Of a stretch of 64,000 nucleotides of DNA, positions 10,487 through 60,701 are shown piece by piece. Below the pieces are notes generated by a model that searched no databases, was not told the origin of the DNA, and saw only the letters and a list, made by a program, of their open reading frames with translations. Source of the DNA: Negativicoccus massiliensis (GTDB lineage: Bacteria > Bacillota > Negativicutes > Veillonellales > Negativicoccaceae). How positions within the stretch are numbered: position 1 is the stretch's first letter; each line of letters begins with the position of its first letter. The stretch is taken from assembly GCA_900155405.1 (NCBI GenBank), contig LT700188.1, forward strand, positions 744,001 through 808,000. The letters run 5' to 3'. Position numbers and translations under genes: made by a program.

Positions 10487-11764
10487 TCACGGGAAGAACG
10501 GCCAAACGATCGGAATCACGATCATCGAAGTGATGAAGCCGACAATACAGAGCGGAATACCGACTTTCAGGTAATCGTTGAAGCTGTATTGGCCCGGTCC
10601 AAGAACCAAGGTGTTCGGCGGTGTCGCTACCGGCGTTGCAAAAGCAGCCGACGCGGCAATCGCGATACTTACGAGCACGGCCTTCGGATCCGCACCCATG
10701 GACTGCGCCATGGAAATGCCGAGCGGTGCCAAGAGCGCCGCCGTCGCCGTGTTGTTCATGAACTGCGTCATGATGTTACTCAAGAGATACATAACCGCTG
10801 CGATAACGAGCGGGTTCGGGCTGTCGCCGAGCCAGCCGACAACGGTATCGGCAATCAATTTGCCGGCGCCCGATTTATCCAAAGCAGTCGCGATCGGCAT
10901 CATGCCGGCGAAGAGGAAAATCGTTACCCAGTCAATGGAGGCATACGCCTGTTTTTCCGTCATACAGCCGGTCAAAACAGCGACCAACGCGCCGATAACG
11001 GCTGCAGTCGTCAGCGAAACGCCGAGCTGTTTGGAGAATACCATCGTCAGTACAACACCGACCAAAATCAAGAGCGAAATAATCTGTTTCGATTTGCTGT
11101 GGTTGACAGTCGACGGATCGACTTCCTGTTCCACTTCGACTTCCGCATCCAGATCATGCGAAGGCAGCAAGCGTTTGCCGACCGTCAGCGTGAACGCGAC
11201 GGTGACGAGCGAAAGCGGAATACCCATCCAGGCGAATTCGAAGAAACCGAATGACGGCAAACCCGCATTGGCCAATGCGCCGGTAACGATAATATTCGGC
11301 GGCGTACCGACCATGGTGAGCGTACCGCCGACGTTGGCGGCGATCGCCATCGGCATCAGGAAGCGCGAGCCTTTCAATTTCGCCGCCGCGCAGATGCCGG
11401 TCACTACCGGAATCAAAGATGCGGCCGTACCAGTGTTGGACAATACCGCACTCATGACAATCGTAACGAGCATAACGCCACCCATCAGGCGCGTTTCACC
11501 CGTGCCCGCCATGCGGACAACCTTTTCACCGATAAGTTGCGCCATACCGGTATGGAACAACGCCGCACCGATGACGAACATGCCGGCGAACAAAACAACC
11601 GTCGAGTTCGAAAGACCCGAGAAAATTTGTTTTTCAGAAATAACGCCTAACAAACCCAGCGCAATCGATCCGCCCATGGAAGTAATCGCAAGCGGAATCA
11701 GTTCGGTAATGAACAGCACCGCGACGACGCCCAGGACGCAAAGAGTAATAATAGCAGGACTCAA
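10487..11764 (-). CDS. SLC13/DASS-family anion permease, copy 1
   Basis: 425 residues, with about eleven hydrophobic segments in two repeats. It carries the paired Asn-Thr motifs of this superfamily (VLSNTGTAASL in the first half, MNNTATAALL in the second). Such carriers move dicarboxylates or related anions with Na+ across the inner membrane. It starts at a TTG after AAGAAGG. By eye it is about 80-85% identical to the copy at 15035-16306, with an unbroken identical block around KQAYASIDWVTIFLFAG. It follows a decarboxylase beta subunit, as its twin does. A role in succinate or malate transport is inferred from context, not shown. Confidence 0.8.
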   Translation of the reverse strand: MSPAIITLCVLGVVAVLFITELIPLAITSMGGSIALGLLGVISEKQIFSGLSNSTVVLFAGMFVIGAALFHTGMAQLIGEKVVRMAGTGETRLMGGVMLVTIVMSAVLSNTGTAASLIPVVTGICAAAKLKGSRFLMPMAIAANVGGTLTMVGTPPNIIVTGALANAGLPSFGFFEFAWMGIPLSLVTVAFTLTVGKRLLPSHDLDAEVEVEQEVDPSTVNHSKSKQIISLLILVGVVLTMVFSKQLGVSLTTAAVIGALVAVLTGCMTEKQAYASIDWVTIFLFAGMMPIATALDKSGAGKLIADTVVGWLGDSPNPLVIAAVMYLLSNIMTQFMNNTATAALLAPLGISMAQSMGADPKAVLVSIAIAASAAFATPVATPPNTLVLGPGQYSFNDYLKVGIPLCIVGFITSMIVIPIVWPFFP

Positions 11765-11848
11765 ATCAATACCTTCTTCCTATAACAACTGTAGAACATT
11801 TGAAAAATAGGTAAGTGGTTCGGGCAAGAAAGTAAGTGGGAAAAAAGT

Positions 11849-12985
11849 TTATTGTATGGCTTGCAACATAGCGAGCATCGTGCCGGCCGCGACCGCCGTG
11901 CCGATAACACCGGCTACGTTCGGTCCCATCGCGTGCATCAGAAGGAAGTTCGACGGATTGGCTTTCGCGCCGACCACCTGCGATACGCGCGCCGCCATCG
12001 GTACGGCCGATACGCCCGCCGAGCCGATGAGCGGGTTGGTCTTGCCGCCGTCCAGCTTCGTCATCAATTGACCGAAGAGTACACCGGCCGCCGTGCCGCC
12101 GATAAAGGCCACCAAGCCGAGGCCGATAATTTCCAGCGTTTGCACGTTCAGGAAACTTTCGGCCGACATCGTGATACCGGTACCGAGCGCGAGGAAAATC
12201 GTAACCGTATTCATCAACGCGTTCTGCGCCGTATCCGACAGACGATGGGTGACGCCGGATTCGTTGATCAGGTTACCGAACATCAGCATGCCGAGCAATG
12301 CCGTGATCGAGGGCAAAATCAACGAAATCAGGATCGTCGCGGCGATGGGGAATACCACCTTTTCAAAATGCGTCACATGACGCAGCTGACCCATGACGAT
12401 TTGACGTTGCTTTTTCGTGGTGAACAGTTTCATAATCGGCGGCTGGATCAAAGGAACCAGCGACATGTACGAATACGCCGCTACCGCGATCGCGCCCAAG
12501 AGTTCCGGTGCAAGTTTGGAAGCGAGGTAAATCGATGTCGGGCCGTCCGCTCCGCCGATAATACCGATAGCCGCCGCCTGCGGTGCCGTAAAGCCCAAGA
12601 ACATAGCGCCCCCGAGTGCGACAAACACGCCGATCTGTGCGGCCGCTCCTAAAAGAAGCGTTTTAGGATTCGCGAGCAGCGGACCGAAGTCCGTCATCGC
12701 GCCAACCCCCATGAAAATAAGTGGCGGAAAAATTTCATACTGAATGCCCGCGCTGATAAGTGCAAAAACTCCTTCTTCGAAGCCGTTTTTCGGTAAGTTC
12801 GCCAAAATACAGCCGAAAGCGATCGGCCCTAAGAGCAAAGGTTCATACTCTTTGACAAACGCCATGTACAGCAATAAAATGCCAACAAAAATCATCAGGC
12901 CATGACCCAGGGAAAAAGCAATCATACCGCTGTCATGCCATACTGATGTGATCGCTACTATGAAGTCTGTTGCAAAACTTCCCAA
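11849..12985 (-). CDS. Na+-translocating decarboxylase beta subunit, copy 1
   Basis: 378 residues, OadB/MmdB family. It is a polytopic membrane protein with the signatures [35 protein letters not shown] and NLINESGV. In this family the subunit decarboxylates carboxybiotin and exports Na+. It is nearly identical to the copy at 16404-17531, but it lies outside the mmd operon, has its own promoter and a 330-base leader, and is followed by its own SLC13 gene. The start is TTG ([11 protein letters not shown]) behind AAAGGAGAGAGG. It could replace the operon copy in the complex or pair with a decarboxylase encoded elsewhere. Confidence 0.88.
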
Positions 12986-15034: not shown

Positions 15035-16306
15035 TCACGGGAAGAACGGCCAAACAATCGGAATTACAATCATCATAACGACGAAGCCTACGAGACAAAG
15101 CGGAATACCGACCTTGAGGTAGTCGTTGAAGCTGTATTGGCCGGGGCCAAGTACCAGAGTGTTCGGAGGCGTTGCAACCGGAGTCGCGAATGCGGCGGAA
15201 GCAGCGATCGCGATAGCAACCAAAACCGCCTTCGGATCCGCATGTAAGGATTGCGCCATCGAAATGCCTAACGGTGCCAACAGAGCGGCTGTCGCCGTGT
15301 TGTTCATGAACTGCGTCATGATGTTGCTCAAAAGATACATCGCCGCGCAGACAAGCAACGGGCTCGGGCTGTCGCCCAACCAGCCGACAACGGTATCCGC
15401 AATCAATTTGCCGGCGCCCGATTTATCCAATGCGGTCGCGATCGGCATCATGCCTGCGAATAAGAAAATCGTTACCCAGTCAATCGAAGCATACGCTTGT
15501 TTTTCTGTCATACAACCCGTCAAGACAGCTGCCAACGCGCCGATAACGGCCGCAGTCGTCAGCGATACGTGCAAGGTTTTCGAGAAGATCATGACGATAA
15601 CGACGCAGATCAGGATCAAGAGCGAAATCATCTGTTTCGTTTTGTTGCCCGATACTTCCGAGACTTCCTGTTCCACTTCCACGGAAGTGTCGATATCATG
15701 TTTCGGCAGTAAGGGTTTGCCGATCGTCAAAGTGAACAGAACCGTCGCGATACAAAGCGGAATACCGGCAAATGCGAATTCGAAGAAACCGAAAGTCGGC
15801 AAATGCGCGTTGGACAACGCGCCGGTAACGATGATGTTCGGCGGTGTACCGACCATCGTCAGCGTACCGCCGGCGTTAGCGGCGATCGCCATCGGCATCA
15901 TGAAGCGCGAACCTTTCAGATGAGCTGCCGCGCAGATACCGGTAACAACCGGGATCAGGGAAGCGGCGGTACCGGTGTTGGACAGTACCGAGCTCATGAT
16001 GATCGTAATCGCCATGACGCCAAACATCAAGCCGGTTTCACTTTTACCGGCCATGCGTACAACTCTTTCTCCGATAAGTTGCGCCATGCCGGTGTGGAAC
16101 AAAGCCGCACCGATGACGAACATGCCGGCGAACAAAACAACTGTCGAATTGGAGAGACCGGAGAAAATCATTTTTTCCGGAATAACACCCAACAAACCCA
16201 GCGCAATAGCGCCGCCCATCGAAGTAATCGCCAAAGGAATAATTTCAGTAATAAAGCAAATGGCGACCACTGCAAGTACAATTAATGTGATGATTGCAGG
16301 GCTCAT
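15035..16306 (-). CDS. SLC13/DASS-family permease of the decarboxylase operon (copy 2)
   Basis: 423 residues, the same architecture as copy 1 with SNTGTAASL and MNNTATAALL motifs. It is the last gene of the operon that runs from scpC through mmdB, 97 bases after mmdB, with no terminator between. Being attached to a complete succinate-to-propionate pathway, it is most simply the Na+-coupled uptake system (or exchanger) for succinate; this is inference. It begins with an ATG behind GAAGGTG. Confidence 0.82.
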   Translation of the reverse strand: MSPAIITLIVLAVVAICFITEIIPLAITSMGGAIALGLLGVIPEKMIFSGLSNSTVVLFAGMFVIGAALFHTGMAQLIGERVVRMAGKSETGLMFGVMAITIIMSSVLSNTGTAASLIPVVTGICAAAHLKGSRFMMPMAIAANAGGTLTMVGTPPNIIVTGALSNAHLPTFGFFEFAFAGIPLCIATVLFTLTIGKPLLPKHDIDTSVEVEQEVSEVSGNKTKQMISLLILICVVIVMIFSKTLHVSLTTAAVIGALAAVLTGCMTEKQAYASIDWVTIFLFAGMMPIATALDKSGAGKLIADTVVGWLGDSPSPLLVCAAMYLLSNIMTQFMNNTATAALLAPLGISMAQSLHADPKAVLVAIAIAASAAFATPVATPPNTLVLGPGQYSFNDYLKVGIPLCLVGFVVMMIVIPIVWPFFP

Positions 16307-16403
16307 AAGAGTACACCTTCTTTTTCGTAATAACTAACAAATAGTCATTGGGCAAAGGTATAAAAGAAGGGCTCGAGGTAAGGGGATATGTTGCGGATGC
16401 TAA

Positions 16404-17531
16404 TTAGTGAGCGCCTGTCGCACTCAACATGGCAAGCATGGTACCGGCCGCTACCGCCGTACCGATTACGCCGGCAACGTTCGGGCCCATGGCGTGCATG
16501 AGCAGGAAGTTAGCCGGGTTCGCTTTCGAACCGACGACCTGCGATACGCGAGCCGCCATCGGAACGGCGGAAACGCCTGCCGAACCGATCAACGGGTTCG
16601 TCTTGCCATCGACCATCAGCATGATCTTACCGAAGATAACACCGCCCGCTGTACCCGCGATGAAAGCAACGAGGCCCAAACCGATGATTTCCAAAGTTTG
16701 AAGGTTCAGGAAGCTTTCCGCCGACATGGTACAACCGGTACCCAATGCCAGGAAGATCGTGACGGTGTTCATCAACGCGTTCTGCGCCGTATCGGACAGA
16801 CGATGCGTAACACCGGATTCATTGATCAGGTTACCGAACATCAGCATACCTAAAAGTGCGGTAATGGACGGAAGTAATAAGCTGATGAAGATCGTAGATG
16901 CGATCGGGAATACCACTTTTTCAAAGTGGGATACCTGACGCAACTGTTCCATGACAATTTGACGATCTTTTTTCGTCGTGAACAATTTCATGATCGGAGG
17001 CTGGATCAACGGAACCAGGGACATGTACGAATACGCCGCTACCGCGATCGCACCCAAGAGTTCCGGAGCCAATTTCGAAGCCAGGTAAATCGAAGTCGGG
17101 CCGTCGGCGCCGCCGATAATACCGATCGCAGCTGCCTGCGGAGCGGTAAAGCCCAAGAACATCGCGCCACCCAAGGCAACGAATACACCGATCTGTGCCG
17201 CCGCGCCGAGCAAGAGGGTTTTCGGGTTCGCAAGCAGCGGACCGAAGTCCGTCATCGCGCCGACACCCATAAAGATCAACGGCGGGAAAATTTCAAACTG
17301 AATGCCCGCATGAATGAGGGCAAAAACGCCTTCTTCAAAGCCGTTTTTCGGCAAGTTGGCAAGGATACAACCGAATGCGATCGGTCCGAGCAACAACGGC
17401 TCAAATTCCTTGGCAAATGCCAGGTAGAGCAACAGTATGCCGACAACGATCATGATCGCGTTACCGATGGAAAATACGATCATGCCGCTGTCATGCCATA
17501 CTGAAGTCACCGCTACTATGAAATCAGTCAT
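16404..17531 (-). CDS. mmdB: Methylmalonyl-CoA decarboxylase beta subunit
   Basis: 375 residues, OadB/MmdB family, multi-spanning. The conserved blocks [28 protein letters not shown] and [14 protein letters not shown] are intact. It removes CO2 from the biotin of MmdC and couples this to Na+ export. The position directly after mmdA-mmdD-mmdC makes it the operon's own beta subunit. The start MTDFIVAV has GAGGAGAT upstream. A close second copy lies at 11849-12985. Confidence 0.93.
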
Positions 17532-17571
17532 TCTGTATCTCCTCTTCTATGTTTTCTGGTAAGTTGAGGTT

Positions 17572-17970
17572 TTAGCCCAACGCGATCAAATCGTCGCCCG
17601 CTTGTACGGTAGCATTGGCTGCGACCAAGATGCTTTTAACCGTAGCGTCGCTCGGAGCATAGATTTCGTTGGCCATTTTCATCGCTTCCAGGACACAGAG
17701 GAGATCGCCGGCTTTAACAGCCTGACCTTCTTTTACGTCAACGGAAAGGATTTTGCCCGGCATCGGAGCTTTCACTGTTTCCGCGCCGGCCGGAGCCGCT
17801 TTCGCTGCCGGAGCCGGAGCTGCCGCCGGAGCCGCTGCTGCTGCCGGAGCCGCTTTCGGAGCCGGAGCCGCTTTCGGAGCCGGAGCTGCTTTCGGAGCTG
17901 CGCCTGCACCGAGTTCGTTGACTTCTACATCATATTCTTGACCGTTAACGGTTACAGAAAATTTTCTCAT
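17572..17970 (-). CDS. mmdC: Methylmalonyl-CoA decarboxylase gamma subunit (biotin carrier)
   Basis: 132 residues: a short N-terminal segment (MRKFSVTVNGQEYDVEV), an Ala/Pro/Lys linker at about 22-62, and a C-terminal biotinyl domain with EAMKM (95-99; biotin on Lys98). It shuttles the carboxyl group from MmdA to MmdB. The linker is encoded by near-perfect repeats of an 18-base unit (APKAAP), which are prone to slippage. The ATG at 17968-17970 has AGGAGG at ideal spacing; the longer frame upstream is not needed. Confidence 0.93.
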   Translation of the reverse strand: MRKFSVTVNGQEYDVEVNELGAGAAPKAAPAPKAAPAPKAAPAAAAAPAAAPAPAAKAAPAGAETVKAPMPGKILSVDVKEGQAVKAGDLLCVLEAMKMANEIYAPSDATVKSILVAANATVQAGDDLIALG

Positions 17971-18016
17971 TGTACATCCTCCTACTAAAAAGTAATTCTC
18001 CAAAACAAGGTACTGC

Positions 18017-18358
18017 TTAGTAATTATCTACTCCAGACAGACGCGCTGCTGCCGTCCAGCCGGTATTTTTCGCCGGACGAATCGACGCAATTTGCGTGCT
18101 CGAGTAGCCCATTGCTACTACTGCTGCGGTGATCGCCGCAACTACTTCATCATTACCGGACGCAGTCGACGTCGCTGCCGGAGCTGCTGCCGCGGCGGCA
18201 GGTGCCGCTTTCGCTACCGGTTTAGGAGACGACTTTTTTTTTCCAGTCGGATCCACAAGTCGAATGATCGTCATGAGTACCCACAGCATAATCAACACAA
18301 AGAATACAATGAACATATTGATCAGCATAAATACCCAAGGATTCAATTCATTTTCCAT
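18017..18358 (-). CDS. mmdD: Methylmalonyl-CoA decarboxylase delta subunit
   Basis: 113 residues, OadG-like. One N-terminal membrane helix (MLINMFIVFFVLIMLWVLM) is followed by a basic segment, an Ala/Pro linker and a conserved C-terminal piece (AAITAAVVAMGYSS). In Veillonella this subunit holds the complex together, and its C-terminal part binds the carboxyltransferase. It lies between mmdA and mmdC as in that genus. No separate mmdE was found. Confidence 0.88.
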   Translation of the reverse strand: MENELNPWVFMLINMFIVFFVLIMLWVLMTIIRLVDPTGKKKSSPKPVAKAAPAAAAAAPAATSTASGNDEVVAAITAAVVAMGYSSTQIASIRPAKNTGWTAAARLSGVDNY

Positions 18359-18413
18359 TCACACCCATCCTTTCTCTTTAGATTTTCCTATATCTCGTTA
18401 TGCCGCTAAGGGA

Positions 18414-19943
18414 TTATAACGGAATATTGGCGTGTTTCTTCGCAGGACGGGCTTCGCGTTTGCTGGCGAGCATGGCCAACGCGTTGATAATGTACGGACG
18501 CGTTTGTTTCGGTTCGATAACTGCGTCAACAAAGCCGCGTTCTGCTGCTTTGTACGGAGTCGCGAACTCTTCCACATATTCTGCCGTCTTTTGTTCTTTG
18601 TCCGGATCTTTCCGGAAGATGATGTTGGCAGCGCCTGCCGGTCCCATAACCGCAATTTCCGAAGTCGGCCAAGCGAATACCTGGTCCGCGCCCAAGTCTT
18701 GGGAGCACATCGCGAGGTACGATCCGCCGTAGGCTTTACGGGTAATTACCGTTACTTTCGGCACTGTCGCTTCCGAGTACGCAAACAGCATTTTCGCGCC
18801 GTGGCGAATGATGCCGCCGTATTCCTGCTGTACGCCCGGCAAGAAGCCCGGTACGTCAACCAAGTTTACGAGCGGAATGTTGAACGCGTCGCAGAAACGG
18901 ATGAAACGGCTGGATTTGTCGGATGCATTGATGTCCAAGCAGCCGGCCATAAATTTCGGCTGGTTGGCAATGATGCCGACGGTTTGTCCGTCGAAACGGG
19001 CAAAGCAGGTGATGATGTTTTTCGCGTAGTGAGCGAGTACATCGTAGTATTCGCCATTGTCGACAATACCTTTGATGACATCGTACATGTCATAGGCTGC
19101 GTTGGAGTTGTCCGGCAACAAGGTGTTGAGGCTTTCTTCCATACGCATCGGGTCATCGCCCGTGTCAACAATCGGAGCTTCTTCCATGTTGTTGCTCGGC
19201 AGGAAGCCCAAGAGGTAGCGGATCTGGTTCAAGCAGTCTTCGTCGTCTTTCGCGATGAAGTGCGATACGCCCGAAATGCTGTTGTGGGTCATAGCGCCGC
19301 CCAGTTTTTCCGCCGTTACGTCTTCACCGGTGACCGATTTAACAACGGCCGGACCCGTGATGAACATTTGGCTGGTGCCATCGACCATGTAGATGAAGTC
19401 CGTCAATGCAGGCGAGTAAACCGCGCCGCCGGCCGACGGTCCCATGATGGCCGAGATCTGCGGAACGACACCGGATGCAATCGTATTTTCGAAGAAAATA
19501 CGGCCGTAACCGGACAATGCGTCAACCGCTTCTTGAATACGAGCGCCGCCCGAATCGTTCAGGCCGACACACGGTGCGCCCATTTTGAGCGAAAGCTGCA
19601 GTACGCGAACGATTTTGCTGGCGTGCATTTCGCCGAGCGAGCCGCCTTCTACCGTGAAGTCTTGCGCGAATGCGTAAACGAGTTTGCCGTCAACGGTACC
19701 ATAACCGGTAACAACGCCTTCGCCCGGAAGATCTTTTTTATCCTGGCCGAAGTTTACGCAACGATGTTTTACCAAAGCACCGATTTCAACGAAGGAACCT
19801 TCGTCAAAAAGGATTTCCAAACGTTCACGCGCAGTCATTTTGCCTTTCGCGTGCTGTTTGTCGATACGGCTTTGGCCACCGCCCATGCGGACGTGTTCCA
19901 AATTTTTATGAAGCAATTCAACTTTTTGCTGGTTTACCGACAT
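18414..19943 (-). CDS. mmdA: Methylmalonyl-CoA decarboxylase alpha subunit (carboxyltransferase)
   Basis: 509 residues, the standard length. It has two crotonase-like carboxyltransferase domains. Visible blocks are the N-terminal AKGKMTARERLEILFDEGSF, GLNDSGGARIQE and, in the second half, VDVPGFLPGVQQE and RKAYGGSYLAM. It transfers CO2 from (S)-methylmalonyl-CoA to biotin on MmdC, giving propionyl-CoA. It starts at MSVNQQKVELL, ATG 19941-19943 behind TCGGAGG; the 13-codon upstream extension has no site. The PCC beta chain is similar, but the mmdD, mmdC and mmdB neighbours decide for the decarboxylase. Confidence 0.94.
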   Translation of the reverse strand: MSVNQQKVELLHKNLEHVRMGGGQSRIDKQHAKGKMTARERLEILFDEGSFVEIGALVKHRCVNFGQDKKDLPGEGVVTGYGTVDGKLVYAFAQDFTVEGGSLGEMHASKIVRVLQLSLKMGAPCVGLNDSGGARIQEAVDALSGYGRIFFENTIASGVVPQISAIMGPSAGGAVYSPALTDFIYMVDGTSQMFITGPAVVKSVTGEDVTAEKLGGAMTHNSISGVSHFIAKDDEDCLNQIRYLLGFLPSNNMEEAPIVDTGDDPMRMEESLNTLLPDNSNAAYDMYDVIKGIVDNGEYYDVLAHYAKNIITCFARFDGQTVGIIANQPKFMAGCLDINASDKSSRFIRFCDAFNIPLVNLVDVPGFLPGVQQEYGGIIRHGAKMLFAYSEATVPKVTVITRKAYGGSYLAMCSQDLGADQVFAWPTSEIAVMGPAGAANIIFRKDPDKEQKTAEYVEEFATPYKAAERGFVDAVIEPKQTRPYIINALAMLASKREARPAKKHANIPL

Positions 19944-20000
19944 TCTTACACCTCCGAATAATGGTAGGGAAGGCCGCCTCATCGAGGCGGCATACTCCTA

Positions 20001-52475: not shown

Positions 52476-52904
52476 TCAACTTTTGAGTTTGGTACCACCG
52501 GCGACTTGCAAACGAATCAATGCACGTTGCAAAGCCAATTCGGCACGGTCACGATCGATATCCTTATCTTTGGATTCCAAACGAGACAACGCGCGATCGC
52601 GCGCTTTCATCGCTCGCTCGACATCGATATAGTCCGCCGTTTCCGCCACTCGGGAGGTAATCGTAATCACATTGTCTTTGACTTCCATGAAGCCGCCGAA
52701 TACGGCGATTACGGTTTCCTTGCCGTCCTTTTTAATGCGGATCGGCCAAACTTTCAATGCCGCTACTAACGGGGCATGATCGCGCATGATCCCGAACTCA
52801 CCGTCAAGTGCGCGTGCGACCACCAAATCGACGCCGTCTTCACTGAAAACAGTACCGTCCGGCGTGATGATGTTGACGCGCATTCCCGCATCATTCGTGG
52901 CCAT
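52476..52904 (-). CDS. atpC: ATP synthase epsilon subunit
   Basis: 142 residues: an N-terminal beta sandwich (VNIITPDGTVFSEDGVDLVVARALDGEFGIM) and a C-terminal helical hairpin rich in Arg/Asp/Ala. It forms part of the F1 central stalk and usually inhibits hydrolysis. Last gene of the operon. Confidence 0.95.
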   Translation of the reverse strand: MATNDAGMRVNIITPDGTVFSEDGVDLVVARALDGEFGIMRDHAPLVAALKVWPIRIKKDGKETVIAVFGGFMEVKDNVITITSRVAETADYIDVERAMKARDRALSRLESKDKDIDRDRAELALQRALIRLQVAGGTKLKS

Positions 52905-52907
52905 GGG

Positions 52908-55228
<2,321 letters not shown>

Positions 55229-55232
55229 TCAA

Positions 55233-56768
55233 TCACCCCGCAACCGTATTACTGTTCCGCGCCGCCTTGAACCGTTCTTTATACTCTTCAATCGCCTGTT
55301 TCAGAGCTTCTTCGTTGGATTCGTCCAGTTTTTTCTTCGCGACGATGTCACGGCCGATATCCGCATACGTGGTACGCAGGTAGTTCACCAGACCGTGTTC
55401 GAACGGAACGACTTCATCCACTTCGAGATCATCCAGGAAACCGTTAACCGCGGCAAAGATCACCATGACCTGTTCTTCGACCGGGTACGGTGTGTACTGC
55501 GGCTGTTTGAGGACTTCCGTCATGCGCTGACCGCGATCGATCTGCGCTTTCGTAGCGGCATCCAAGTCCGAACCGAACTGCGCGAAAGCGGCGAGTTCGC
55601 GGAACTGTGCCAAGTCCAAACGCAAGGTACCGGCGACCTGTTTCATCGCCTTAATCTGCGCGGAACCGCCGACACGGGATACCGAAAGGCCGACGTTGAC
55701 CGCCGGACGAACGCCCGAGTAGAAAAGTTCCGTTTCCAGGAAAATCTGACCGTCAGTAATGGAAATGACGTTGGTCGGAATGTACGCACCGACGTCGCCT
55801 GCGAGCGTTTCAATGATCGGCAACGCGGTAATCGAACCGCCGCCCATATCATCGGAAAGTTTCGCCGCACGTTCCAAGAGACGGGAGTGTAAGTAGAATA
55901 CGTCGCCCGGATACGCTTCACGTCCCGGCGGACGACGCAGCAAGAGCGACATCGCACGGTACGCTACCGCGTGTTTGGACAAGTCGTCATATACGCACAG
56001 TACGGCTTTGCCCTGGTACATGAAGTGTTCCGCCATGGCAACACCCGCGTACGGAGCAATGTACTGCATCGGCGAACCTTCCGATGCGCCGGCGTGCACG
56101 ACGATCGTGTAATCCATCGCGCCCGCTTCCGTCAGTTTGTCGACAAGACGAGCGACCGTCGAGTTCTTCTGACCGATAGAAACGTAAATACAAATAACAT
56201 CCTGTCCTTTTTGGTTCAGGATGGTATCAATCGCTACCGCCGTTTTACCGGTACTGCGGTCGCCGATGATCAGCTCACGCTGTCCGCGTCCGATCGGAAC
56301 CATCGAGTCGATGGATTTAATACCGGTTTGTAACGGTTCATTAACCGACTGCCGATCCGCAATACCCGGCGCAGGAAATTCCACACGACGGTGGTCAGCA
56401 GCGGGAATCTCCCCTTTGCCGTCCAACGGTTGACCGAGCGCGTTGACAACGCGACCGATCATCGCTTCGCCTACCGGCACCTGCATAACACGACCGGTGC
56501 GTTTGACCGTGTCGCCTTCTTTAATCGTTTCGTAGTTGCCCAGCAATACGGCACCGACGTTCGACTCTTCCAAGTTGAGCGCCATCCCGTATACGCCGTT
56601 CGGCAACTCGAGCAGCTCACCGGCCATACACTTGTCAATACCATAGATATGTGCGATACCGTCGCCCACTTCCAATACCGAGCCTACTTCATCGACATTG
56701 AGGTCTGCTGTGTAATTTTCGATTTGCTGTTTAATCACCGATGTTATTTCATCCGGTTTAATTTTCAT
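55233..56768 (-). CDS. atpA: ATP synthase alpha subunit
   Basis: 511 residues. P-loop GDRSTGKTA, with [23 protein letters not shown]. The F1 regulatory nucleotide subunit. It overlaps the atpH stop by four bases. Confidence 0.97.
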
Positions 56769-57337
56769 ATTGCGTTAGTCACCTCAATCCCATGTTTTTC
56801 CGATAGTAGGGTCGTCTTCATTTCGTGTAACTGTCGTTTTAAGGACCCGTCAATGCGCTGGTCGCCGATCGTCACGATCATGCCGCCCAAAATCGACGGA
56901 TCGATCGTTTTCTCCAGATAAATTTCTTTTCCGGTCAATTCGGTCAGCTCGCGAATCAAACGGGTTTCTTCTTCGTCAGTCAAGTCCACCGCCAAACGCA
57001 CCTGCGCTTCGGCAATGTTGCGTTCGACATGCGACAACTCCAGATAGACATCAATAATATCCGGCAGGAGCGCAATTCGGCCGCGGTCAATGACAACACC
57101 CAGAAATCGCATGACCATCGGATTCAGATGTTGCGTAAAAATCCGTTCTACGACTTCTTTTTTTGCCTCGCGGGAGATCAACTGATTGCGCAAAAATTCC
57201 GTTAATTCCGGATTTTGCTGCACAATCTCGCCGATTTGTGCGAGTTCCTGCTCAACTTCTTCCAATGTGCCGGTTTCCTTGGCTAAAGCCAAGAGCGCCG
57301 CCGCATATTTTTTGGCAAGTGCTCGGTTATTTTTCAT
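56765..57337 (-). CDS. atpH: ATP synthase delta subunit
   Basis: 190 residues, OSCP/delta family: N-terminal helical domain ([22 protein letters not shown]) and C-terminal [20 protein letters not shown]. It joins F1 to the peripheral stalk. One base from atpF and overlapping atpA. Confidence 0.95.
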
Positions 57338-57338
57338 C

Positions 57339-57833
57339 TTACCGACCTACTTGCTTTGTGGCCAACTTTTCGATGCAGTCATTAATCAGTTTACGATTCA
57401 TATCCGCATCAAGGTTTTTGGCAATCAGTCGCTCAGCGATCGCTGTAGCGAGTTCTACCACCTCGGCACGCAAATTCTTCACAAGTTCCTCGCGTTCTTC
57501 CGCCAATTGACGGGTAGCGAGCGTTTTTTCCTGTTCGATTTGAGCACGTACCGTATCCAGTTGCGCTTGGGCTTGTTCTTCCGCTTCCGCAACGGCTTTA
57601 TTAACGATTTCCTGCGCTTGCGCGCGCGCCGATTCCAGTTGCGCCTGGTATTCCGCATGCAGTGCTTCCGCCTGTTTCCGGGCTTGTTCCGCGCCGCTTA
57701 AATCTGCAGCAATCCGAGCTTTACGAGCATCGAGAGTCCGCATCAGCGGACCGAAACCGAATTTTCCTATGATGGCAACGAGAACGAAAAAGTTGAGGAT
57801 TTGGATAATCAAAGTAAGGTTAAATTCGACCAA
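57339..57833 (-). CDS. atpF: ATP synthase b subunit
   Basis: 164 residues: an N-terminal membrane anchor (FNLTLIIQILNFFVLVAII) and a long charged helix with Glu/Ala/Gln repeats. The peripheral stalk dimer. Confidence 0.95.
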   Translation of the reverse strand: MVEFNLTLIIQILNFFVLVAIIGKFGFGPLMRTLDARKARIAADLSGAEQARKQAEALHAEYQAQLESARAQAQEIVNKAVAEAEEQAQAQLDTVRAQIEQEKTLATRQLAEEREELVKNLRAEVVELATAIAERLIAKNLDADMNRKLINDCIEKLATKQVGR

Positions 57834-57866: not shown

Positions 57867-58127
57867 TTAGAGCAAGTCAACGAGCGGGTTGGCAAATACC
57901 AAAACGAGCGCAATAACCGACGAAATAATCGGAATCGATTCGATCAAGCCGATCGAGATCAGCAAGTTAACCATCAAACGTTGCGCCATTTCCGGCTGAC
58001 GAGCCATGGCGTCCAATGCAGTCGTAGCCGCTTTCGCGTCAGAGAATGCCGCCGCAACCGAAGCGACGCAAGCGATCAAAGCTGCGCAAATCGCAGAAAC
58101 AACAAGTACTAAAGCAGTAGATTCCAT
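57867..58127 (-). CDS. atpE: ATP synthase c subunit, unusual sequence
   Basis: 86 residues, two helices with the polar loop ARQPE (42-46) and the ion-carrying carboxylate Glu63 in IESIPIIS. Compared with known Na+ c subunits, Thr and Tyr after the Glu-Ser are replaced by Ile, and the Gln of helix 1 aligns to Asp30. The Gly-x-Gly packing motif of helix 1 is missing, replaced by ACVASVAAAFSDA. A proton-type ring is the more likely reading, but the glycine loss is unusual. Short initial hydrophobic segment and no extension. Confidence 0.9.
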   Translation of the reverse strand: MESTALVLVVSAICAALIACVASVAAAFSDAKAATTALDAMARQPEMAQRLMVNLLISIGLIESIPIISSVIALVLVFANPLVDLL

Positions 58128-58886: not shown

Positions 58887-59276
58887 TCACCTATTTTTTA
58901 TATGCTTGAAGTCGCCTAAAAACGTGACGAAATAGTACACGAGTTTCAGCGACAGTAAGCCGCAAACTGTAGCCCCGAAATGGGCTAAATGGGTTTTTAA
59001 GACCACCAGCAAAAAGAGGATGGCCACAAAGAAACGCCCTGCCGCGACATTGGTTAGTCTTCTCGCCATATCCAGATCATCGCGATCGCGTTGCTTAAAC
59101 GCGATCAATGCAAGGTAAGAAAAATACGCTATATTAAAGGCGCCGCCTACGATCCAACCGACGGCCCAGTCCCCTTTGCCGAACAGGAGAACGAGGACCG
59201 CCCCCGCGGCCATCAACGCTCCTTGCCAATGCATGCAGGCAAGCAGCCAACGAAAAAGTTCCCGACCGTCCGTCAT
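58887..59276 (-). CDS. atpI: ATP synthase subunit I-like protein
   Basis: 129 residues with four hydrophobic segments (GALMAAGAVLVLLFG, WIVGGAFNIAYFSYLALI and two more). It matches in size and place the AtpI proteins that assist c-ring assembly or Mg2+ uptake. Four bases overlap with atpZ. Confidence 0.8.
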   Translation of the reverse strand: MTDGRELFRWLLACMHWQGALMAAGAVLVLLFGKGDWAVGWIVGGAFNIAYFSYLALIAFKQRDRDDLDMARRLTNVAAGRFFVAILFLLVVLKTHLAHFGATVCGLLSLKLVYYFVTFLGDFKHIKNR

Positions 59277-59482
59277 TTGCGAATCATGTCACGAACTAAC
59301 GTCAACAGACCTGTCAGCGCACCCGCCACGCCTCCGGCCAACAAACCGAACGGAGCCGTGCCGACATATTTGTCGAGGAGATACCCTAAATACAGGCCGA
59401 ATAAAATCGTGCAAAGCAGTGTCATACCGGCACCGGTAGCAATGGCTAACGCCCGCCGCCAATTAAATTCCTGTTCTTTCAC
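59273..59482 (-). CDS. atpZ: AtpZ-like small membrane protein
   Basis: 69 residues from a GTG (59480-59482) preceded by AAGGAGG. Two helices (ALAIATGAGMTLLCTILFG and GLLAGGVAGALTGLLTLV). First gene of the operon. The 24-codon longer frame lacks a ribosome-binding site. An extended -10-like TGATAGAAT lies about 50 bases upstream (near 59535), but no clear -35, so transcription may also come from wecB. Confidence 0.78.
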   Translation of the reverse strand: MKEQEFNWRRALAIATGAGMTLLCTILFGLYLGYLLDKYVGTAPFGLLAGGVAGALTGLLTLVRDMIRK

Positions 59483-59543
59483 CGGAGACCTCCTTGCCGC
59501 GCACATGAGGTCATAAGAACCTGCACATGCAGTTATTATTCTA

Positions 59544-60701
59544 TCATAATTCATTAGTATTGGCTATAAATTCAGGCGGTTTTTTCGCCGTTTTGCCGTA
59601 GGCGTACAAAAGCGCCTGCACAATTCTTCCGGCGGCTTTACCGTCGCCGTACGGATTGACGGAATTCGCCATCCGACGGTACAAATCGTCGTCGGACAAA
59701 AGACGTTTCGCTTCCCGATACACATCTTCTTCCGCCGTGCCGATCAGGTTCACCGTGCCGGCCGCCACCGCCTCGGGGCGTTCCGTGGTATCGCGCAACA
59801 CGAGCACCGGTTTGCCTAAGCCCGGCGCCTCTTCCTGAATGCCGCCGGAATCGGTCAATATCAGATCGCTTTGCGCCATCAATTGCGCAAACGGTTCATA
59901 ATCCAACGGTTCGATCAAATGCACATGCGGCACATCGCCGAGTTCCGCCCGAACGACTTCACGCACCGCCGGATTTTTATGAACCGGAAACACCAGTTCC
60001 AAGTTCGGCACATCTTCCAGTATCCGCCGTAACGCGCGATATACGTCGCGCATCGGGTCGCCCAAGTTTTCGCGTCGGTGGGTGGTGACCAACAGCGTGC
60101 GCCGCGACGGATCAAGCTTCACCGGCAGCATATTCGCATCAAAAGGACGGCCGACCGTCTGCAAAAGCGCATCGATGACCGTGTTTCCCGTCACGAAAAT
60201 CGATTCTTCCGCGACATTTTCCCGCAACAGATTCGCTTTCGTTTCCGGCGTCGGCGCAAAGTGGTATCGCGCCAGCCGACCGGTCAAACGACGGTTCATT
60301 TCTTCGGGAAACGGCGAATAAATATCGCCTGTTCGCAACCCCGCTTCCACGTGACCGACCGGAATCTGCTCATAAAACGCGGCGAGCGCGCCGGCAAAAG
60401 TTGTCGTCGTGTCGCCGTGAACCAAGACCACATCAGGACGTTCCTGCTGCAGACATGTCCGCAAGCCGAGCAACGCCCGGCTGGTGACGTCATATAAAGT
60501 TTGTCCCGGCGCCATGATATCTAAATCGTAATCCGGCGTAATCGCAAATAACCGCAACACCTGGTCAAGCATCTCGCGATGCTGCGCGGTCACGGTAACG
60601 CATACGGAAAATTCCGGATGCCGGGCGAGTTCGGAAACGACCGGAGCCATCTTGATGGCTTCCGGACGAGTACCAAAAATGGTCATTACCTTGATTGTCA
60701 T
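59544..60701 (-). CDS. wecB: UDP-N-acetylglucosamine 2-epimerase
   Basis: 385 residues. MTIFGTRPEAIKMAPVVSEL at the N-terminus; VTTHRRENLG and TDSGGIQEEAPGLGKPVLVLR are the standard nucleotide-sugar sites. It converts UDP-GlcNAc to UDP-ManNAc for surface polysaccharide. The ATG 60699-60701 follows GAGGAACG; the longer frame reads back into wecA. Ten bases from wecA. Confidence 0.94.
   Translation of the reverse strand: MTIKVMTIFGTRPEAIKMAPVVSELARHPEFSVCVTVTAQHREMLDQVLRLFAITPDYDLDIMAPGQTLYDVTSRALLGLRTCLQQERPDVVLVHGDTTTTFAGALAAFYEQIPVGHVEAGLRTGDIYSPFPEEMNRRLTGRLARYHFAPTPETKANLLRENVAEESIFVTGNTVIDALLQTVGRPFDANMLPVKLDPSRRTLLVTTHRRENLGDPMRDVYRALRRILEDVPNLELVFPVHKNPAVREVVRAELGDVPHVHLIEPLDYEPFAQLMAQSDLILTDSGGIQEEAPGLGKPVLVLRDTTERPEAVAAGTVNLIGTAEEDVYREAKRLLSDDDLYRRMANSVNPYGDGKAAGRIVQALLYAYGKTAKKPPEFIANTNEL

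What the first reader, a model, noticed from the sequence alone, without database searches (positions are those of the whole stretch)
57867..58127. ATP synthase c subunit lacking the glycine packing motif
Helix 1 normally carries repeated Gly-x-Gly spacing that packs the ring tightly. Here it reads ACVASVAAAFSDA, and the Na+-coordinating residues after Glu63 are Ile. An organism with a Na+-pumping decarboxylase but apparently H+-type ATPase chemistry needs an antiporter link. The ring size and packing may be altered.
Basis: partly seen in the sequence, partly recalled or inferred. Interest (0 to 1): 0.5.

Follow-up and report, generated by a model that had tools for sequence, protein, structure and literature searches.

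The report
Glycine-poor ATP synthase rotor subunit
This bacterium's ATP synthase rotor protein is real and intact but packs its inner helix with alanine and serine instead of glycine, a change also seen in several related fermenters that may alter the size of the rotor ring.

Summary
The c subunit is real: window 57867-58127, minus strand, in an F-type atp operon. Helix 1 reads ACVASVAAAFSDA as reported; the five usual glycine slots are S23, A25, A27, S29, A31, and G60 is the only glycine. The ion site was partly misread. Ser64, not Ile, follows Glu63, and a second carboxylate, Asp30, sits where Ilyobacter has Gln32 and Fusobacterium Glu32; Ile65 and Ile68 replace Thr67 and Tyr70. By a published rule (polar at position 67 in Na+ rings, Leu/Ile/Val in H+ rings) this is a mixed, two-carboxylate, probably H+-coupled site. 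That site is normal for the order (Asp in 59 of 60 genomes). Glycine loss is not unique: 13 of 60 order genomes have no slot glycine, including 10 of 12 in the Dialister family, and other lineages lose some or all. Published rings with such losses (AxAxAxA c13; AxGxAxAxG c17) suggest a larger ring; nothing here measures it. Loss shows no association with Na+-decarboxylase genes (10 of 13 versus 30 of 47) and does not follow a succinate lifestyle. The genome has two antiporter-family proteins, two decarboxylase beta subunits and no Rnf/Nqr match. A modest new variant of a known rotor.

The parts
57867..58127 (-). atpE, F-type c subunit, 86 aa; slots S23 A25 A27 S29 A31; Asp30, Glu63, Ser64, Ile65, Ile68
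58037..58061 (-). stretch coding residues 23-31 (SVAAAFSDA), the former glycine slots with Asp30; end points rounded to within a codon
58181..58858 (-). atpB, a subunit
   Evidence: TIGR01131 141.2 bits, cut-off 102.6
57339..57833 (-). atpF, b subunit (TTG start as listed)
   Evidence: TIGR01144 97 bits, cut-off 65.5
56765..57337 (-). atpH, delta subunit, by position and length; no family scan run
55233..56768 (-). atpA, alpha subunit
   Evidence: TIGR00962 838.6 bits, cut-off 484.45
54362..55228 (-). atpG, gamma subunit, by position and length; no family scan run
52908..54329 (-). atpD, beta subunit
   Evidence: TIGR01039 851.2 bits, cut-off 462.85
52476..52904 (-). atpC, epsilon subunit
   Evidence: TIGR01216 103.2 bits, cut-off 67.25
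58887..59276 (-). atpI-like gene
   Evidence: PF03899 33.1 bits, cut-off 25.1
59273..59554 (-). ATPase_gene1 (atpZ-like) gene
   Evidence: PF09527 36.1 bits, cut-off 26.6
16404..19982 (-). Na+-pump decarboxylase cluster of methylmalonyl-CoA type: beta 16404-17531, biotin carrier 17572-18003, small subunit 18017-18358, carboxyltransferase 18414-19982; mutase and epimerase-like genes follow
   Evidence: PF03977 510.3 bits, PF01039 656.1 bits; MmdC 170.4 (cut-off 200), MmdD 124.5 (cut-off 150), oadG_fam 42.4 (cut-off 36.05)

Best explanation
It is an ordinary, functional F-type c subunit whose ion site is of the published 'mix' kind. Glu63 carries the transported ion; Asp30 on helix 1 is a second carboxylate that probably stays protonated and donates a hydrogen bond; Ser64 is kept; the Thr67 and Tyr70 positions are Ile. 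The transported ion is most likely H+. Helix 1 packs through Ala and Ser instead of Gly, which probably loosens packing and gives a larger ring (13 or more subunits, so 4.3 or more ions per ATP) than the c11 Na+ rings. Sodium expelled by the decarboxylase would reach this enzyme through Na+/H+ exchange, or the enzyme may mainly hydrolyse ATP to hold a proton gradient. Shown: sequence, operon, residue identities, predicted hairpin, distribution among relatives. Inferred: protonation of Asp30, coupling ion, ring size, direction of work.
For: Intact gene in an atp operon with the expected subunits. Residue correspondence from spacing (33 residues between the carboxylates in both), from the 3zk1 superposition with offset plus 2 at the C-terminal end and from the printed 3zk1 alignment of a related query. 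Aliphatic residue at the Thr67 position, the published H+ mark. The second carboxylate is argued to stay protonated in F. nucleatum and expected so in H+ rings. Ser at position 66 does not go with the Na+ pump: 20 of 40 Ser genomes and 20 of 20 Ala genomes have OAD_beta. Glycine loss goes with larger rings in AxAxAxA c13, AxGxAxAxG c17 and I. tartaricus mutants.
Against: Four of the five direct Na+ ligands of F. nucleatum have a plausible counterpart here (Asp30, Glu63, Ser64, a backbone carbonyl), so Na+ binding is not excluded. 28 of 60 order c subunits have Met at position 67, which the published rule does not list. Large c14 and c15 rings keep slot glycines (alignments), so glycine content alone does not set ring size. 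Neither antiporter-family protein is identified as Na+-specific.
Confidence: 0.5

Rival explanations
1. A Na+-coupled two-carboxylate ring like that of F. nucleatum: protonated Asp30, Glu63, Ser64 and a backbone carbonyl bind Na+, so the decarboxylase drives ATP synthesis directly, as in Propionigenium.
For: Asp30, Glu63 and Ser64 kept at the ligand positions; Na+-pump decarboxylase genes and a second OAD_beta gene in the window; Propionigenium precedent (PMC8473912 passages); no Rnf/Nqr match.
Against: Thr67 and Tyr70 counterparts are Ile, against the published Na+ rule. In the order, Ser at 66 does not track the pump gene: 20 Ser-type genomes lack it and 20 of 20 Ala-type genomes have it. 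Asp is shorter than the Gln or Glu of the Na+ rings.
Confidence: 0.25
2. The small-residue exchange is nearly neutral: Ala and Ser fill the slots of an otherwise ordinary ring, with no change in ring size or physiology.
For: Nearly all slot letters in rows without slot glycine are small (Ala, Ser, Thr, Cys, Asn; exception VATNR in L115). No association with the Na+-pump gene (10 of 13 versus 30 of 47, Fisher p 0.51) and none visible with succinate specialists.
Against: Single changes at these positions alter ring size in I. tartaricus, and natural rings with Ala or Ser there are large.
Confidence: 0.24
3. The gene is degraded or not used.
For: Low family score (39 bits genome-wide), the lowest of the 60 order matches.
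Against: Open frame, ribosome-site-like stretch, operon with the expected genes, 99% identity in the second species of the genus, sole copy in a 99.96% complete genome.
Confidence: 0.01

Closest known systems
Fusobacterium nucleatum Na+ two-carboxylate c11 ring (PDB 3zk1; PMC3692424)
   Same: Second carboxylate at position 32, Glu65, Ser66; hairpin superposes (Z 10.7, 2.8 A, 85 residues)
   Different: Asp instead of Glu at 32; Ile for Thr67 and Tyr70; no slot glycines
Bacillus pseudofirmus OF4 c13 ring (PDB 2x2v; PMC2914638)
   Same: Glycine motif replaced by small residues (AxAxAxA there)
   Different: OF4 site is E/D-only; here Asp30 and Ser64 are present and slots 1 and 4 are Ser
Burkholderia pseudomallei N-type c17 ring (PMC5376962)
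   Same: Two carboxylates and partly replaced glycines (AxGxAxAxG)
   Different: That is an alternate-type ATPase with Glu30; the alternate-type models score below their cut-offs here
Mycobacterial c9 ring (PDB 4v1f; PMC5874750 passages)
   Same: Asp32 with Glu65; hairpin superposes (Z 10.7)
   Different: Ala66 and Ala67 there; Ser64 and Ile65 here; glycine slots there not checked
Dialister-family c subunits (e.g. L117, D. succinatiphilus)
   Same: ASIAAAFSDS against ASVAAAFSDA; same ESIPII
   Different: Sister family; the loss there may be separate but this is unresolved

Membership tests
F-type ATP synthase c subunit (PF00137 / TIGR01260) | Scores over the curated cut-offs | tested here: met
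   42.8 of 24 bits; 54.1 of 43.95 bits
F-type ATP synthase c subunit (PF00137 / TIGR01260) | Two-helix hairpin with RQP loop and a carboxylate in helix 2 | tested here: met
   helices 2-43 and 45-78, pLDDT 92.1; R43-Q44-P45, Glu63. The fold match alone is weak evidence: an unrelated helical chain, 6swg, reaches Z 9.0
F-type ATP synthase c subunit (PF00137 / TIGR01260) | Gene within an atp operon | tested here: met
Rings with the GxGxGxG helix-1 motif | Glycine at the helix-1 slots | tested here: not met
   S23, A25, A27, S29, A31
F. nucleatum-type Na+ two-carboxylate rings | Carboxylate at 32, Glu65 and Ser66 | tested here: met
   Asp30, Glu63, Ser64; Asp in place of Glu
F. nucleatum-type Na+ two-carboxylate rings | Thr67 and Tyr70 | tested here: not met
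   Ile65 and Ile68
F. nucleatum-type Na+ two-carboxylate rings | Na+ protects the site and stimulates the enzyme | not testable with these tools
   needs protein
'Mix' H+ c subunits (PMC2914638) | Elements of the Na+ motif without the complete set | tested here: met
'Mix' H+ c subunits (PMC2914638) | Proton coupling | not testable with these tools
   inferred only, from position 67
Alkaliphile AxAxAxA rings | Ala at the slots | tested here: not met
   Ser at slots 1 and 4
Alkaliphile AxAxAxA rings | E/D-only ion site | tested here: not met
   Asp30 and Ser64 present
N-type (alternate F1F0) ATPases | Scores over the alternate-ATPase models | tested here: not met
   c 51.1 of 130.85, a 104.6 of 302.1, alpha 641.8 of 750.5, beta 612 of 752

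The most novel reading that the evidence does not exclude
A recurrent rotor type: a glycine-free, Ser/Ala-packed helix 1 (AS-x-AAAFSD) joined to an Asp/Glu two-carboxylate site, reached separately in the window's family, the Dialister family and another Bacillota family, giving enlarged rings (13 or more subunits) that let fermenters run ATP synthase on a small ion gradient.
Probability: 0.2. Interest if true: 0.55.

Novelty: new variant of a known kind. Interest (0 to 1): 0.3.

Why it matters
I know of no solved ring that joins a two-carboxylate site to a helix 1 without slot glycines (not checked systematically). Closely related pairs, Megasphaera with glycines and Dialister or this genus without, are a natural experiment on whether the glycine motif sets ring size, and whether a fermenter with a Na+ pump couples ATP synthesis to Na+ or to H+. 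If ring size does not differ, the glycine rule is weaker than reviews suggest.

Tried and rejected
Succinate idea: I expected glycine loss to mark succinate-decarboxylating specialists (their physiology is recalled, from no call). Not supported: among the rows titled Phascolarctobacterium or Succiniclasticum in the 78-row tree, eight keep AGGGG or AGAGG with Asn at position 32 (L163, L164, L171, L190, L192, L193, L167, L168) and two do not (L145 SAAGS, L142 SATGS).

Na+-pump idea: no slot glycine against OAD_beta presence, 10 of 13 versus 30 of 47 genomes, Fisher p 0.51, no phylogenetic correction. Ser at 66 against the pump runs the wrong way: 20 of 40 Ser genomes have it, 20 of 20 Ala genomes have it.

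Phe28 as a companion change: 19 of 20 rows with Phe there lack glycine at slot 2, but independent pairs (8) go 2.9 for, 0 against, median p 0.25: not shown.

Separate origins: parsimony on the 78-row tree leaves the common ancestor of the window's family and the Dialister family undecided at slots 2 and 4. The 112-row AtpB tree adds a second glycine-bearing early Dialister-family branch, L049 (its clade with the rest 98, the rest without it 87), which by my own count favours two losses (2 changes against 4). Not proof.

Motif scan: the degenerate pattern hit 11 of 398 phylum genomes; 3 (G000, G742, G567) lie in c subunits, the other 8 in unrelated frames.

Rows: of 173 rows with a readable c subunit, 166 had both AtpA and an AtpB of 180 aa or more; identical AtpB merged them to 116. 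Dropped before the 112-row counts: L170 and L191 (Gln or Glu at 32, other organisms), L106 (contains N, broken frame), and L090 (G087, same class, Ile at 32 and slots AAAGS; a counter-example to Asp or Asn throughout). The 78-row tree left out 38 of the 116, mostly for short AtpA. L175 (slots SMASS) was in neither. The class rows are no random sample: 30 genomes were picked mostly for weak PF00137 scores, and 80 loci are the best 80 of 241 relatives; three of the 112 rows (L169, L176, L180) are Bacillota MAGs that sit on a long branch. Only the order set (60 of 61 genomes held; G348 without a match) is complete as held.

Ring-size modelling was not tried: the fold tool predicts single chains. 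No held paper on c subunits of Negativicutes showed in the listings; weak evidence of absence, since most listed papers were not opened.

Full report
What is there. The coordinates hold an 86-residue F-type ATP synthase c subunit on the minus strand. It scores 42.8 bits against PF00137, cut-off 24, is the only PF00137 match in the 1.36-Mb genome, has an aggagga stretch before its start, and lies among genes for AtpZ-like, AtpI-like, a, b, delta, alpha, gamma, beta and epsilon proteins (delta and gamma by position and length only). AlphaFold gives a confident hairpin (pLDDT 92.1) that superposes on c-ring chains, among them F. nucleatum 3zk1 (Z 10.7, 2.8 A, 85 residues) and I. tartaricus 1yce (Z 10.4); an unrelated helical chain reaches Z 9.0, so the fold match alone says little.

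Helix 1. In register with the RQP loop the five glycine slots are S23, A25, A27, S29 and A31. The protein has one glycine, G60, the lowest count among 112 compared rows, shared by 2 of them.

Ion site. After Glu63 come Ser64, Ile65, Pro66, Ile67, Ile68. In F. nucleatum the Na+ ligands are Glu32, the Val63 carbonyl, Glu65, Ser66 and a water near Thr67, with Tyr70 bonded to Glu65 (PMC3692424, passages). The counterparts here are Asp30, Leu61, Glu63, Ser64, Ile65 and Ile68, from equal spacing, from the offset in the 3zk1 superposition and from the printed 3zk1 alignment of a related query. So this is a two-carboxylate site with part of the Na+ ligand set. A published survey says all predicted Na+ c subunits have Ser, Thr, Gln or Arg at the Thr67 position and all predicted H+ ones Leu, Ile or Val (PMC2359735, section 6 read). 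PMC2914638 (Introduction and passages) calls proton rings with elements of the Na+ motif 'mix'. The F. nucleatum authors argue that the second carboxylate stays protonated and expect this in H+ rings with two carboxylates too (Discussion read). H+ coupling is the better bet, not certain.

Relatives. I fetched the c subunit of the 60 of 61 order genomes with a match. Position 32 is Asp in 59 and Asn in 1; the residue after Glu is Ser in 40 and Ala in 20; position 67 is Met 28, Ile 24, Val 8; position 70 is Ile in 60. Met is not in the survey's list for either ion. So the ion site is the local norm. The glycine slots are not: 13 of 60 have none, namely 3 of 4 in the window's family and 10 of 12 in the Dialister family, and six Veillonella-family genomes read AAAGA. 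Outside the order, some uncultured Selenomonadales have bulky slots (IAVGS, IMVGS), Schwartzia succinivorans AMVGS, Acidaminococcus SATGS, SASGS or SGTGS. Parsimony needs 6 changes for 'no slot glycine' and 13 for 'no glycine at slot 2' on the 112-row AtpB tree, and 4 for the former on the 78-row AtpA+AtpB tree. Another Bacillota family (L169, L176, L180; G742, G567) reads AS[FI]AAAFSD in its c subunit, L180 with Ala at the last slot. These rows were partly picked for being odd or similar, so class counts are not frequencies; dropped rows are under Tried and rejected.

Ring size. Published cases link loss of slot glycines to larger or wider rings: AxAxAxA in B. pseudofirmus, c13, and two Gly-to-Ser changes in Bacillus TA2.A1 (PMC2914638, passages); AxGxAxAxG in B. 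pseudomallei, c17 (PMC5376962, passages); I. tartaricus point mutants (PMC3692424); a review's statement that smaller residues give smaller rings (PMC7003800, passages). Against a simple rule, the Spirulina c15 (size) and spinach c14 subunits keep four slot glycines (alignments). A larger ring is plausible, not shown.

Energetics. The window holds a Na+-pump decarboxylase cluster of methylmalonyl-CoA type beside mutase and epimerase-like genes (MmdC and MmdD models below their cut-offs) and a second OAD_beta gene. The genome has one PF03553 and one PF00999 protein and no PF03116 (Rnf/Nqr) match. Both antiporter-family proteins are far below NCBIfam cut-offs; the best model of the second is a K+/H+ antiporter. 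Only these families were searched. The pump gene does not go with glycine loss (10 of 13 versus 30 of 47) nor with Ser at 66 (20 of 40 with Ser, 20 of 20 with Ala), so Ser is no sign of Na+ coupling here. PMC8473912 (passages) describes Propionigenium, where decarboxylation drives a Na+ ATP synthase directly; that is the main rival.

Verdict. Observation partly confirmed, interpretation partly supported: a normal enzyme part with a locally common ion site and an unusual, recurrent helix-1 packing. Worth a ring-size measurement; not a new kind of system.

Noticed in passing
window 10490-12985 and 15038-17531, minus strand: Two OAD_beta sodium-pump beta subunits, each beside a CitMHS/DASS-like transporter gene: a doubled arrangement.
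   Followed up: partly
L185, L187, L189, L108-L114: Uncultured Selenomonadales c subunits with bulky Ile, Val or Met at helix-1 slots (IAVGS, IMVGS), a stronger departure from the glycine motif than the window's.
   Followed up: partly
L191:3618-3866: A contig titled Planctomycetales carries a c subunit with Glu at position 32 and Glu-Ser-Thr in helix 2, like the F. nucleatum Na+ ring.
   Followed up: no
G322 (Dialister-family genome): Eight OAD_beta matches in one genome, six of them within about 24 kb.
   Followed up: no
L136, L140: MAGs titled Acholeplasmataceae group with Acidaminococcaceae in the AtpA+AtpB tree, so the titles are probably wrong.
   Followed up: no
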